Source: Thermoleophilia bacterium
Lineage (GTDB): Bacteria; Actinomycetota; Thermoleophilia; Miltoncostaeales; Miltoncostaeaceae
NCBI GenBank assembly: GCA_020848615.1
Contig: JADLHW010000024.1
Location: 1 to 64,000, forward strand
Length of the DNA: 64,000 nucleotides
Reading direction: 5' to 3'
Each line of letters opens with the position of its first letter. The stretch's first letter is position 1. Position numbers and translations under genes: made by a program. The notes under the pieces are model-generated. The model was not told the DNA's origin, searched no databases, and saw only the letters and a list, made by a program, of their open reading frames with translations. This document shows positions 8,738 through 15,290 of this stretch, one piece after another.

Positions 8738-9640
8738 TCAGGCGGTGCCCGAGAAGGTGTTGCAGGCCTCGGGTCCGGCGGCCTTGTAGCCCTCCTGGAA
8801 CCAGTGCTGCCGGCGCTCGCTCGAGCCGTGCGTGAAGCTCTCGGGGATCACCCGGCCCTGGAACGTCTCCTGGATGCGGTCGTCGCCCACGGCCGCGGCG
8901 GCGTCCAGCGCGGTGGCGATCTCCCGCTGGGTCACCTCGAAGCCGATCACGCCCCGCCCGGCGTTCGCCGTCCAGGCGCCGGCGAGGCAGTCCGCCTGCA
9001 GCTCCGACCGCACGGCGGCGCTCTGCGGGCCGGTGCGCCGGTCGCCGCTGATCTGGTCGAGGACGCCGAGCAGGTTCTGCACGTGGTGCCCGTACTCGTG
9101 AGCCACCACGTACGCCTCGGCGAAGGGGCCGCCCTGGGCGCCGAACTGGTCCTGCAGCGTCCGGAAGAACCCGAGGTCCAGGTAGATCTTCTTGTCGCCC
9201 GGGCAGTAGAACGGCCCGGTCTGCTCCGTCGCGGTCCCGCACGCGCTGGTGGTGCTGCCCGAGAAGAACACGGTGGTCGCCGGCGTGTACGAGCGGCCGA
9301 GGTTCTTGAACTCATGCCGCCAGTAGGCCTGGATGTCGTTGATGAAGGCCACCATCCGGCAGTCCTCGCGCTCGTCGGCGTCCGCACCCGTCCGGCAGGC
9401 GGTCTGCACCTCGCCCGCGCCCTGGGACGCGCCCGGTCCGAGCGCCTGGTCGTCCAGGCTCGCCCGGCCCCCCAGGCCGGAGCCGCCGCCGCCGACCCCG
9501 AAGATCAGCGCGAGGATCACGCCGATGATCCCGAGTCCGCCGCCGCCCACGGCGATGCCCCCGCGGCCGCCCAGCCGGCCACCGCGCCGGTCCTCGATCT
9601 GTGAGGTGTCGAGCTGTGAGTTGTCGTCGAAGTCGACCAT
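8738..9640 (-). CDS. Neutral zinc metallopeptidase (YpfJ/KPN_02809 family)
   Basis: A 300-residue membrane-anchored zinc metallopeptidase. The N-terminus is a charged segment and a glycine-rich stretch followed by one hydrophobic helix at about residues 30-50 ([13 protein letters not shown]). The catalytic domain carries the zinc motif HEYGHH in [12 protein letters not shown], and the family sequences [23 protein letters not shown] and [12 protein letters not shown]. Four or more cysteines suggest an extracytoplasmic domain. The ATG at 9640 fits the family start (MVDFDDN). The substrate is not known for this family. The gene is convergent with GntR, and a degraded reading frame lies directly upstream. 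Confidence 0.9.
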
Positions 9641-10955: not shown

Positions 10956-11270
10956 ATGGACATTCCGCAGCAGTCCCCCCGCGAGCGCAACGACGCCCGG
11001 CTGTCGCGCATCAAGACGGGGATCCTCGTCGCGTCGGCCGCGGCGTTCGCCGCGATCGGGGGTGCCGTGGCCACCTCGGGCGACGGCGGCGACTCCTCCG
11101 CGGCCACCCAGGACGCGGTCCGGCAGCAGCCTCAGCAGGACCAGGGGTCGTTCTTCGGCGACGATCAGAACCAGGGGTTCCAGGACGGCGCCCCGCAGGA
11201 CCAGGGCGGGTTCTTCGCCCCCGGCTCGGACCAGTCCGGCGCGCCGGCGATGCGATCGGGCGCCTCGTGA
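10956..11270 (+). CDS. Small membrane-anchored Q/D/G-rich protein, candidate flavin carrier for ApbE
   Basis: A 104-residue protein with a basic N-terminus, one transmembrane helix at about residues 19-40, and a disordered extracytoplasmic tail rich in Gln, Asp, Gly and Phe. It has no recognised domain. Its tail carries D-Q-S-G-A-P (residues 92-97) and ends in S-G-A-S. ApbE attaches FMN to Thr or Ser in D-x-(S/T)-G-A-(T/S) motifs, so these two SGA sites are candidate flavinylation points, though neither is canonical. The stop overlaps the apbE start (TGATG), and a ferric-reductase-like gene follows, so the three genes should be co-translated. The function is inferred from context. Confidence 0.7.
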   Translation: MDIPQQSPRERNDARLSRIKTGILVASAAAFAAIGGAVATSGDGGDSSAATQDAVRQQPQQDQGSFFGDDQNQGFQDGAPQDQGGFFAPGSDQSGAPAMRSGAS

Positions 11271-12205
11271 TGCCGGGGCGCCTGTCCACCCCCGCGGGGA
11301 TGAGCCGGCTGAGGTTCCCCGCCATGGGCACCGACGTGGAGGTGCTCATCCCCTCGCAGGACGTCGCCGCCGGGCACCGCGTGCGCGAGCTGTTCGAGGA
11401 GTGGGAGTCGGTGCTCAGCCGCTTCCGCCCCGACTCGGAGCTCTCGCGCGTCAACGCGTCGGGCGGCGGCGTGGCGAGCCCCCTGCTGGCGGAGGCGGTG
11501 GGCGCGGCCCTGCTCGCCGCGCACGCCTCCGGGGGCCTGTTCGACCCGGGGCTCGCCGTGCAGCTGTCACAGGCCGGGTACGACCGGCCGTTCACCGAGA
11601 TGGACCCGTCGTCTCCCCTGCCCGCCCCGGCCGCGGCGCGGCCCGGTGGCGACTGGCGGCGGGTCCTGCTGACCGACCGCCGCCTGCTGCGGCTGCCGCC
11701 CGGCATGCACCTCGACCTGGGCGGCATCGCGAAGGGCATGGCGGTGGACGCCGCCGTCACGCTCATGCGCCGCCTGGAGGTGCCCGGCGGCGTGGTGAGC
11801 GCCGGCGGGGATCTGGCGGTGTGGGGCCTGCCGCCGCGCGGCCGATCGTGGGGCATCGACGTCGACGCGCCCGTCCGCACCGCGCGCGTCCCCCTGCGGC
11901 GCGGCGCACTGGCGACCTCCGGCACGCAGCGGCGCAGGTGGGAGACCACCGACGGCCCGGCCCACCACACCATCGACCCCCGCACGGGCCGGCCGGCCGT
12001 CACGGACCTCGTCTCGGCGAGCGTCGTGGCGTCCCGCTGCCGTGAGGCGGAGGTGGCGGCCACGGCCGCCCTCGTCCTCGGCGCCGAGGACGGCGCCGCA
12101 TTCCTGACCGCGCGCGGCCTGCACGGGCTGCTGGTGCGACGCGACGGCCCGCCGGCGACGGTGGGGGCGTGGCCCGCGCGCGACCGAGCCGAGGTGAACC
12201 GATGA
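11270..12205 (+). CDS. apbE: FAD:protein FMN transferase ApbE
   Basis: A 311-residue member of the ApbE family, which covalently links FMN from FAD to Ser/Thr of extracytoplasmic electron-transfer proteins. Visible motifs in order are RFPAMGTDVEV near the start, SRFRPDSELSRVNA, LDLGGIAKGMAVDAA (flavin pocket), VSAGGDLAVWG, HHTIDPRTGRPA and TDLVSASVVA. No obvious signal peptide or lipobox is present, unlike many exported homologues, so location is uncertain. The start ATG at 11270 overlaps the previous stop by one base. The stop overlaps the next start as ATGA, giving a three-gene coupled operon with a small anchored protein and a ferric-reductase-like protein. Confidence 0.9.
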   Translation: MPGRLSTPAGMSRLRFPAMGTDVEVLIPSQDVAAGHRVRELFEEWESVLSRFRPDSELSRVNASGGGVASPLLAEAVGAALLAAHASGGLFDPGLAVQLSQAGYDRPFTEMDPSSPLPAPAAARPGGDWRRVLLTDRRLLRLPPGMHLDLGGIAKGMAVDAAVTLMRRLEVPGGVVSAGGDLAVWGLPPRGRSWGIDVDAPVRTARVPLRRGALATSGTQRRRWETTDGPAHHTIDPRTGRPAVTDLVSASVVASRCREAEVAATAALVLGAEDGAAFLTARGLHGLLVRRDGPPATVGAWPARDRAEVNR

Positions 12206-12909
12206 GCGGCGAGCTCCTCTGGTACTTCGCGCGGGCCGGCGGCTTCGTCGCCTACGGCCTGCTCACGGCCAGCGTGGCGATGGGCCTGCTGGCGAGCCTG
12301 CGCGTCACGGCCCCCGGGTGGACGCGGGCGATGACCACCGAGGTCCATCGCTTCGTCACCATGACCGCCCTGGGCTTCACCGCCCTGCACGTCCTCACCC
12401 TGGTGGCGCACCCCACCGAGGGCTACGGCATCACCGAGGTGCTCATCCCGTTCGCGGCGGCCCGCGAGCCGCTGTGGACCGGGCTCGGCGTGATCGCCAT
12501 GGAGCTGGCGGTGGCCGTGTGGCTCACCACCCACTTCCGGCAGCGGATCGGGTACGGCCGCTGGCGGCAGCTCCACTACCTGGCCTTCGTGAGCTTCGGC
12601 GCGGCGCTGGTGCACGGCATCGCGCAGGGCACGGACACCGCCACCCCGTGGGGACGGGTCGTCTACATGGCGTCGATGGGCCTGGTGGGCGGCCTCCTGG
12701 CCGTCAGGATCTTCGGCGCCCAGCGGCCGGCGGCCGACCCGGAGGCGGCGACGGCGACGCGGCCGGCCCCGGTCGCCGCGCGTGCGGCCCCGGCCCCGGC
12801 CAGGGCCGTGACGACGTCGCTGCCGCCGCTGCCGGAGCGCCCCTCGCCGGCGTCCGGCGGCCTGCCGCCCCTGGGGTCCGCGGCGAACACGGTGCGGCGC
12901 GGCGCCTGA
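12202..12909 (+). CDS. Ferric-reductase-like transmembrane protein (haem b electron-transfer subunit)
   Basis: A 235-residue integral membrane protein with about six helices between residues 7 and 180, then a Pro/Ala-rich cytoplasmic tail. It matches the ferric reductase-like transmembrane domain. Paired histidines suited to haem b ligation are seen in EVHRF, ALHVLTL, WRQLHYLAF and ALVHGIAQGTD. It lacks the FAD/NAD(P)H domains of full ferric reductases, so it probably passes electrons across the membrane to a flavinylated partner. The start ATG at 12202 overlaps the apbE stop (ATGA) and follows GAGGTG. A hairpin at 12894-12917 covers the stop codon. Confidence 0.85.
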   Translation: MSGELLWYFARAGGFVAYGLLTASVAMGLLASLRVTAPGWTRAMTTEVHRFVTMTALGFTALHVLTLVAHPTEGYGITEVLIPFAAAREPLWTGLGVIAMELAVAVWLTTHFRQRIGYGRWRQLHYLAFVSFGAALVHGIAQGTDTATPWGRVVYMASMGLVGGLLAVRIFGAQRPAADPEAATATRPAPVAARAAPAPARAVTTSLPPLPERPSPASGGLPPLGSAANTVRRGA

Positions 12910-14243: not shown

Positions 14244-15182
14244 TCAGTGGCAGGCCGAGGTGCAGCCCGCGGCGCCGGCGCCCGGCGTGAGCAGCCGCGC
14301 CTGCCGGTGCTCCATCTGCAGGGTGCTGTGGGAGATCCCGAAGCGGTGCTGCAGGAGCTCCTCCAGCTCCCGCCGCACCCGGTGGCAGTCGCTGTCGTGG
14401 GTGACCACCACGTGCGCGGAGATCGCGGGGAAGTCGCTCGAGACGCTCCAGATGTGCAGGTCGTGGACCTCCACCACGTCCGCGGCACCGGCGAGGGCGG
14501 CGCCCACCGCCTCGGGGTCCATGCCGCGGGGCGCCGCCTCGAGCAGCACCAGCACCGACTCCCTCAGCACGCTCCAGGCGCTCACGGCGATGAGCCCGGC
14601 GATGGCGATGGCGATGACCGGGTCGGCGATGCGCCAGTCGAACGCCAGCACCAGGGCGCCGGCAACCAGGACGCCCACGGACGCCAGCGCGTCGCCCGCC
14701 AGGTGCAGGAACGACGCGCGCAGGTTGAGGTCGTCCCGTCCGCGGGCGGCGCGGTGGACGATCCAGGCGCTCAGGGCGTTCACGGCGATGCCGCCGACGG
14801 CGACCGCCATGAGCCAGCCACCCGGCACCTCGGGCGGGTCGGCGAGCCTCCGGACGGCCTCGAACAGGATGATGCCGCTCACCGCGACGATGGACAGCGC
14901 GTTCGCCAGGGCGGCGAGGATCTCCGCCCTGCGGTACCCGAAGCTGTGCCGGGGCGTCGCCGGGCGCCGCGCGAACCACACGGCCCCCAGGGCGACGGCC
15001 AGGGCCAGGACGTCGGAGAGGTTGTGACCCGCGTCGGCCAGCAGCGCCATCGACCCGAACGCGATGCCCACCACCGCCTGCAGCGCCGTGTACCCGGCGT
15101 TCAGCACCAGCGCCGTGGTGAGCGCCCGGCCGCCGTCCGCGGCGTGGTGGTGATGGTGGTCGTGCCCGTGGCCCACCTCCAC
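14244..15182 (-). CDS. Cation diffusion facilitator (zinc efflux, CzcD/ZnT-like)
   Basis: A 312-residue inner-membrane metal/proton antiporter of the CDF family. The N-terminus is a His-rich loop (GHGHDHHHHH), then six transmembrane helices follow. Helix II carries AGHNLSD and helix V carries HLAGDALAS, giving the HxxxD/HxxxD tetrahedral site typical of zinc-selective members. A C-terminal cytoplasmic domain of about 90 residues has the ferredoxin-like dimer fold (VVEVHDLHIWSVSSDF) and ends in GCTSACH, a possible extra metal site. The GTG at 15182 has GGGAGG about 11 nt upstream; GTG 15257 would add 25 unconserved residues and reach into the divergent promoter region. Confidence 0.9.
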   Translation of the reverse strand: MEVGHGHDHHHHHAADGGRALTTALVLNAGYTALQAVVGIAFGSMALLADAGHNLSDVLALAVALGAVWFARRPATPRHSFGYRRAEILAALANALSIVAVSGIILFEAVRRLADPPEVPGGWLMAVAVGGIAVNALSAWIVHRAARGRDDLNLRASFLHLAGDALASVGVLVAGALVLAFDWRIADPVIAIAIAGLIAVSAWSVLRESVLVLLEAAPRGMDPEAVGAALAGAADVVEVHDLHIWSVSSDFPAISAHVVVTHDSDCHRVRRELEELLQHRFGISHSTLQMEHRQARLLTPGAGAAGCTSACH

Positions 15183-15290
15183 ATCGTGCCATCCCTCCCG
15201 GCCGCGGTCACGGAGCGCGTGATTCCGTCCGATCCGCGTGTCGAAAATGCCGGGCACAGCCGCTCCTCGACCCGACCACCGGGAGTCCCC

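What the first reader, a model, noticed from the sequence alone, without database searches (positions are those of the whole stretch)
10956..12909. ApbE operon with a tiny disordered protein in place of the usual FMN-binding domain
A 104-residue anchored protein with a Q/D/G-rich tail is translationally coupled to apbE and a ferric-reductase-like membrane protein. ApbE systems usually include a domain protein with a D-x-(S/T)-G-A-T site. Here the only candidates are D-Q-S-G-A-P and the terminal S-G-A-S of the small protein. A flexible peptide carrying one or two covalent FMN groups would be a minimal extracytosolic electron shuttle. Known: ApbE chemistry and ferric-reductase/ApbE pairing. Inferred: the identity of the flavin acceptor.
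Basis: partly seen in the sequence, partly recalled or inferred. Interest (0 to 1): 0.72.

Follow-up and report, generated by a model that had tools for sequence, protein, structure and literature searches.

The report
Disordered protein ending in flavin-attachment tag
A tiny membrane-anchored, floppy protein whose last residues resemble the site where the enzyme ApbE attaches the redox cofactor FMN sits beside an ApbE and a haem membrane protein, and the same arrangement recurs in many actinobacteria, which suggests a new kind of flavin carrier.

Summary
In detail: ORF 10956-11270 (104 aa, one TM helix, disordered tail ending MRSGAS; 'B') overlaps apbE (11270-12205), which overlaps a four-histidine ferric-reductase-like gene (12202-12909). 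The genome has two apbE loci and no hit to FMN_bind, DUF2271 or NqrB/RnfD. In the class, 230 of 399 genomes have ApbE and 49 have FMN_bind. The tail end is the conserved part of B: in 236 apbE loci examined, an ORF stopping at the apbE start ends in [ST]x[AGSTV][ST] in 87 of 121 (class), 14 of 40 (rest of phylum) and 44 of 75 (named genomes), against 10 of 642, 2 of 211 and 2 of 327 control gene starts. Fusions of such a tail to the ferric-reductase protein, and a canonical DSTSGAS end in Streptomyces, point the same way. Best reading: the C-terminal Ser is the FMN acceptor of the neighbouring leaderless ApbE, a natural counterpart of the engineered Flavin-tag, reduced by the haem protein. The DQSGAP candidate is rejected, so one FMN, not two. 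Flavinylation, topology, export order and final acceptor are inferred. This is a new acceptor class in a known kind of system and a candidate answer to the 'orphan ApbE' question.

The parts
10956..11270 (+). B: 104-aa type II membrane-anchored disordered protein, proposed FMN carrier
   Evidence: ORF with stop overlapping the apbE start; one helix plus coil in the model; recurrent in relatives
11016..11072 (+). predicted TM helix of B (residues 21-39), +3 before and -3 after it
   Evidence: hydropathy and charge count
11229..11246 (+).
   Evidence: Pro at the acceptor position; SGAP seen only in the sister genome L041
11256..11267 (+). C-terminal SGAS (residues 101-104), proposed flavinylation site with Ser104 as acceptor
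   Evidence: matches the published [S/T]GA[S/T] motif; conserved tail position in relatives
11270..12205 (+). apbE, leaderless FAD:protein FMN transferase (311 aa)
   Evidence: PF02424; PDB ApbE matches, best E 1.4e-24; Ser217, His232, His233, Asp236 kept, metal-site Asp is Glu261
12202..12909 (+). ferric-reductase-like (MsrQ-like) membrane protein, proposed di-haem cytochrome that reduces the FMN
   Evidence: PF01794; invariant H49, H63, H125, H138; five helices, mean pLDDT 85; SpNOX Z 15.0, rmsd 3.0, 150 aligned

Best explanation
B is the FMN carrier of a minimal ApbE / di-haem cytochrome system. The neighbouring leaderless ApbE transfers FMN from FAD to the hydroxyl of the C-terminal Ser of a flexible tail: a natural C-terminal flavin tag. 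The tail is tethered by one TM helix, lies outside the membrane, and lets its FMN collect electrons from the outer haem of the ferric-reductase-like protein and hand them to an extracytoplasmic acceptor. SHOWN by computation: gene coupling, recurrence, tail conservation, lack of FMN_bind in most relatives with ApbE, ApbE catalytic residues kept except one metal ligand, four invariant His in the cytochrome, tail-cytochrome fusions. INFERRED: flavinylation of that Ser, tail-out topology, modification before that end is exported (ApbE has no signal peptide), electron direction and final acceptor. Where relatives carry NuoF-like and ferredoxin genes the donor is probably NADH; for this window the donor is unknown.
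For: (a) An ORF stopping at the apbE start ends in [ST]x[AGSTV][ST] in 87/121, 14/40, 44/75 loci vs 10/642, 2/211, 2/327 control gene starts; the stricter [ST]G[AGST][ST] gives 56/121, 5/40, 24/75 vs 4/642, 0/211, 0/327. (b) In 261 pairs of related B proteins the last four residues are 91% identical, N-terminus plus TM 56%, linker 34% (part of this is imposed by the motif). (c) Endings include DSTSGAS in Streptomyces justiciae and DATTTGS in Curtobacterium, with Asp at the canonical place. (d) Class: 230/399 genomes with ApbE, 49/399 with FMN_bind. (e) Both ApbE loci of this genome have their own B-type protein. (f) Three ferric-reductase ORFs carry an extra TM and a tail ending ATGGS/ATGAS. 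(g) A ferric-reductase gene lies within 5 kb in 133 of 145 tail-bearing loci vs 45 of 91 others. (h) Published: seven residues suffice for ApbE and terminal tags work best (PMC12052999, passages).
Against: No flavin has been detected. The Asp that begins the textbook motif is missing here and in most tails; one report calls it essential for V. cholerae ApbE (PMC10722498), another study found Asp to Ala minor (as told in PMC12052999). Thr is the better acceptor in tests, yet these tails use Ser. The ApbE metal ligand Asp (E. coli D280) is Asn or Glu in 139 of 145 tail-linked ApbEs, so activity is not assured. ApbE is leaderless while the tail looks extracytoplasmic. Strict [ST]GA[ST] ends are few (6/121, 0/40, 6/75). 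45 loci with a ferric-reductase gene lack the strict coupled tail, though many have the motif near the end or elsewhere in the locus.
Confidence: 0.72

Rival explanations
1. The tail is flavinylated but lies on the cytoplasmic side with ApbE, and feeds electrons from NADH/ferredoxin into the cytochrome instead of taking them out.
For: ApbE is leaderless. NuoF-like and ferredoxin-like genes are near 72 and 68 of 145 tail-bearing ApbEs. Some B proteins (SGGS type) are about as positive after the TM as before it.
Against: 68 of 86 B proteins are more positive before the TM than after, the window's by +3 to -3. In the fusions the tail follows an extra TM after the positively charged end of the cytochrome core, which puts it outside.
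Confidence: 0.13
2. The tail is a docking or recognition element for ApbE or the cytochrome and is not itself modified; the true ApbE substrate is another protein.
For: Leaderless ApbE could be recruited to the membrane by a tail. The tails vary (SGGS, TRSS, TRTS, SRAS), more than a strict acceptor site would. Fifteen frames with D-x-x-[ST]-G-A-[ST] were seen among the 30 of 59 pattern loci read in this genome.
Against: The ends match the acceptor motif, with Ser/Thr kept at the acceptor place even when one to four residues follow. No FMN_bind, DUF2271 or NqrB/RnfD hit. The pattern matches are near what the reversed control pattern gives (59 vs 39). The ferric-reductase protein has no Ser/Thr column conserved over 80%.
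Confidence: 0.1
3. Chance or low complexity: Ser-rich tails end in Ser, and coupling to apbE makes it look meaningful.
For: Tails are rich in small residues (mean 79% of A/G/P/S/T/Q/E/D/N after the TM).
Against: The end is far better conserved than the linker and strongly enriched over control gene starts of the same regions.
Confidence: 0.03

Closest known systems
MsrQ-like flavinylation clusters of Actinobacteria (Meheust et al. 2021, PMC8238504, section 10 read)
   Same: ApbE next to a PF01794 di-haem protein, sometimes with a NuoF-like NADH subunit; proposed outward electron transfer.
   Different: There the carrier is a folded FMN_bind domain; here a disordered tail with the site at its end, a leaderless ApbE and no NAD-binding domain on the cytochrome.
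Flavin-tag (Tong et al. 2021, as told in PMC12052999 and PMC10722498; original not held)
   Same: A short peptide with the motif at a protein terminus is enough for ApbE.
   Different: Engineered and built on D-x-x-[ST]-G-A-[ST]; the natural tails mostly lack the Asp and use Ser.
ApbE-linked FMN_red proteins (PMC11334425, passages)
   Same: Predicted flavinylation sites on an unstructured C-terminal extension.
   Different: That extension reaches back to a folded flavin pocket; B has no folded domain.
DUF2271 and DUF3570 ApbE substrates (PMC8238504, section 7 read)
   Same: Substrates found by looking beside orphan apbE genes.
   Different: Both are folded domains with an internal [ST]GA[ST] site.

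Membership tests
ApbE FAD:protein FMN transferase (PF02424) | profile match over the curated cut-off | tested here: met
   194.9 bits, cut-off 25.6
ApbE FAD:protein FMN transferase (PF02424) | catalytic Ser/His and HHxIDP motif | tested here: met
   window S217, H232, H233, D236; the four columns read SHHD in 139 of 145 tail-linked ApbEs
ApbE FAD:protein FMN transferase (PF02424) | metal-ligand Asp (E. coli D280) and Thr (T284) | tested here: not met
   Asp is Glu261 here, Thr265 kept; Asn 83, Glu 56, Asp 5, gap 1 of 145. Glu can be a ligand, so this lowers certainty of activity rather than membership by fold
ApbE FAD:protein FMN transferase (PF02424) | FMN transferase activity | not testable with these tools
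   needs enzyme assay
FMN_bind (PF04205) | profile match of B or of any protein of this genome | tested here: not met
   B: no Pfam family at E 1; genome: 0 matches
ApbE substrates | [S/T]GA[S/T]-like motif | tested here: met
   SGAS is the last four residues of B
ApbE substrates | Asp three residues before the first Ser/Thr of the motif | tested here: not met
   Ala98 at that place in B; D at -7 in 10 tail-bearing loci only, L054 among them by chance
ApbE substrates | covalent FMN | not testable with these tools
   needs in-gel fluorescence and mass spectrometry
MsrQ-like / ferric reductase domain (PF01794) | profile match and four haem-ligand His | tested here: met
   31.4 bits, cut-off 28; H49, H63, H125, H138 in all 184-185 rows with a residue there
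[quoted passage not shown]
   window ApbE shows no hydrophobic leader and there is no FMN_bind gene; no signal-peptide program was run

The most novel reading that the evidence does not exclude
A large share of leaderless actinobacterial ApbEs, with relatives in Chloroflexota and perhaps Bacillus, serve an unrecognised class of substrates: encoded C-terminal flavin tags on disordered, membrane-tethered strings. FMN is loaded onto the last residue in the cytoplasm before that end is exported, and the string then works as a fishing line that carries electrons from a NOX/STEAP-like di-haem protein into the cell wall. The Asp to Asn/Glu change at the metal site marks the ApbE subfamily adapted to such tails.
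Probability: 0.45. Interest if true: 0.85.

Novelty: new variant of a known kind. Interest (0 to 1): 0.75.

Why it matters
Meheust et al. report that genomes with ApbE but no known substrate remain and that some substrates are unidentified (PMC8238504, section 7). Their cluster filter asked for a signal peptide or lipidation site in a target gene (section 23), which these clusters would probably fail. If right, a redox carrier for extracytoplasmic electron transfer needs no folded cofactor site at all, an engineered labelling trick has a natural precedent, and a large set of orphan ApbEs becomes directly testable in cultured genera such as Streptomyces and Curtobacterium.

Tried and rejected
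Rejected: DQSGAP as a second site (Pro at the acceptor position). Rejected: the ferric-reductase protein as the substrate (no Ser/Thr column conserved over 80%). Considered and weakened: that the free carboxylate of the terminal Ser stands in for the lost metal-site Asp of ApbE; several relatives have one to four residues after the motif (TRSSR in L235, L237, L248; SGGTGD in L070; TSGSR in L363; TGGSAPPP in L378) while their ApbEs mostly lack the Asp too.

Uninformative: a genome-wide DNA pattern for D-x-x-[ST]-G-A-[ST] (59 matches, 39 for the control pattern; I read the 30 of 59 that came as loci). Promoter/terminator scan: none found, none expected. Foldseek E-values for the ferric-reductase model were weak (best 7.9e-3); one search is a second look at the same list and lists no MsrQ, which excludes nothing. 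PDB search with B gave chance matches only. Some B proteins from elsewhere gave weak NCBIfam hits far under the cut-offs.

Paper searches without a description of such tails: ApbE + Thermoleophilia (0 papers); flavinylation/C-terminal/disordered/FMN transferase (14); flavin-tag/ApbE/C-terminus (21); flavinylation + ApbE + substrate since 2024 (8); ApbE + Streptomyces + FMN transferase (1); ApbE + intrinsically disordered (3). Listings only, except the papers named as read. Preprints and most subscription papers are not held.

Limits of the counts: ApbE places were fetched from the top of score-ranked lists, not at random. Of 246 ApbE frames 236 were kept; the others had a low score, a late profile start or under 200 nt upstream. 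L054 matches the tail pattern probably by chance (a lipoprotein). The motif was chosen after seeing the class tails. Starts of small ORFs were taken mechanically. The leader check was a crude pattern; it flagged 13 tail-bearing ApbEs, all on letters that by eye lie before the likely start.

Full report
WHAT IS THERE. Three co-directional, overlapping genes: B (10956-11270, 104 aa), apbE (11270-12205) and a PF01794 ferric-reductase-like gene (12202-12909); a PAC2 gene follows and an alpha/beta hydrolase lies divergently upstream. B has a positively charged N-terminus, one TM helix and a Q/D/G-rich tail that ends MRSGAS. It has no Pfam match at E 1 and no NCBIfam match at E 0.1 and models as one helix plus coil. 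The genome (G000, 96.5% complete) holds two ApbE loci and no hit to FMN_bind, DUF2271 or NQR2/RnfD. The second locus (L040) has its own B-type protein, ending APVAATRSS, beside its own apbE and a short membrane protein of the ferric-reductase kind.

IS IT MORE THAN CHANCE. In 61 genomes (this one and 60 relatives) 30 have ApbE and 2 have FMN_bind; in 399 genomes of the class 230 and 49 (all 49 are among the 230, checked by hand against the lists, which leaves 181); in 396 genomes of the phylum 197 and 125. I fetched 120 class regions, 40 regions elsewhere in the phylum (36 with ApbE E-values from 2.6e-60 to 7.6e-48, and four high-scoring ones) and 80 loci of other genomes with titles (the best 80 of 574). 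Among 236 usable ApbE loci, an ORF that stops between -60 and +45 nt of the start of the ApbE profile ends in [ST]x[AGSTV][ST] in 87 of 121, 14 of 40 and 44 of 75; for other gene starts of the same regions the counts are 10 of 642, 2 of 211 and 2 of 327. An earlier run with slightly different limits gave 86 of 120 against 14 of 729, and about eight of those 14 look like B tails in front of other genes of the same clusters. The motif was chosen after seeing class tails, so the other two sets are the fairer test. In 112 distinct 8-mers the place -4 is Ser 76/Thr 36 (imposed by the motif), -3 Gly 61, Arg 18, Ser 12, -2 Gly 63, Ala 24, Ser 16, and -1 Ser 110/Thr 2. In 261 pairs of related B proteins the last four residues are 91% identical and the linker 34%.

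NEAR-MISSES. Of 45 loci with a ferric-reductase gene but no strict coupled tail, a number show the motif a few residues from the end (SGGT-GD, SSGS-H, TRSS-R, TSGS-R, TGGS-APPP) or have a B-type ORF elsewhere in the locus; others show neither. Two Bacillus loci (L263, L311) have an 82-84 aa ORF ending in TTRR[ST]; whether that is the same thing is open. Most loci with metal-site Asp/Thr ApbEs and no ferric-reductase gene have no ORF of 50 aa or more at that place. ApbEs linked to FMN_bind in the same class look like another subfamily (GTYERGxHIIDP, ADALATA), and their acceptors read xxVSGATYTS.

THE PARTNERS. The ApbE has no visible leader, matches solved ApbEs (best E 1.4e-24) and keeps Ser217 and HHxIDP. 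The metal-ligand Asp (E. coli D280, from a table in PMC4767422, passages seen) is Glu261 here and Asn or Glu in 139 of 145 tail-linked ApbEs. Tail type (Arg/Lys against Gly at -3) is clustered on a quick ApbE tree of 175 rows (five changes; near-copies help clustering). The ferric-reductase protein has four His invariant in 184-185 rows, five helices in the model and the NOX/STEAP/b561 arrangement in a second-look alignment (SpNOX Z 15.0, rmsd 3.0, 150 aligned; STEAP4 Z 13.5, rmsd 3.8, 160 aligned; helical bundles score high in general). Of 189 closed ferric-reductase ORFs four end in the motif; three of these (two in L071, one in L073) carry an extra TM helix and a disordered tail ending ATGGS or ATGAS. 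This links the tail to the cytochrome and, by charge, puts it outside. Near the 145 tail-bearing ApbEs lie NuoF-like frames in 72, ferredoxin-like in 68 and histidine-kinase-like in 84 (one query each, so approximate).

MECHANISM. I read B as a natural C-terminal flavin tag: ApbE links FMN to the terminal Ser, the cytochrome reduces it, and the flexible string carries the electrons outward. A C-terminal site is the last part to cross the membrane, which could let a cytosolic ApbE modify it first; this is inference. Known chemistry fits: the motif is [S/T]GA[S/T]-like (PMC8238504, passages), seven residues suffice and tags at the termini work best (PMC12052999, passages and section 8). The Asp of the textbook motif is missing here; reports differ on its weight.

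WHAT IS KNOWN. MsrQ-like clusters of Actinobacteria with FMN_bind proteins, and the remaining orphan ApbEs, are in PMC8238504 (sections 7, 10, 23 and passages). PMC11334425 (section 5 and passages) adds Flavodoxin_4 and FMN_red substrates, the latter with sites on an unstructured C-terminal extension. I found no description of domain-free tails in the searches listed under Tried and rejected.

Noticed in passing
L040:5872-6285 and L040:8055-8357 (own genome, contig C53); similar in L042, L045, L049, L072: Small TM proteins with Asp/His/Glu-rich tails (for example ...DDDDHGDD) flank the B-apbE-ferric-reductase genes of the TRSS type, often with histidine kinase/response regulator genes nearby; they look like metal-binding tails. 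No Pfam family.
   Followed up: partly
L043, L044, L051, L052, L100, L104, L110, L128: Another group of apbEs without a ferric-reductase gene follows a lipoprotein-like gene of about 180 aa whose tail also ends in S-x-x-S (SKQS, SGQS, SRWS, SDWS, SRHS): perhaps an independent case of a terminal acceptor.
   Followed up: partly
ApbE position of E. coli D280 (Glu261 of the window ApbE): The conserved metal-ligand Asp is Asn in 83 and Glu in 56 of 145 tail-linked ApbEs, and Asp in most ApbEs of loci without a ferric-reductase gene outside the class.
   Followed up: partly
L073:4757-6061 and similar loci: NuoF-like NADH-oxidising subunit (PF01512, PF10589) and a small ferredoxin-like ORF beside SGGS-type clusters.
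   Followed up: partly
window 14244-15257 (-): Protein with a His-rich N-terminal stretch (GHGHDHHHHH) that reads by eye like a cation diffusion facilitator; not searched.
   Followed up: no
window 8738-9640 (-): Protein with an HEYGHHVQ stretch that reads by eye like a neutral zinc metallopeptidase; not searched.
   Followed up: no
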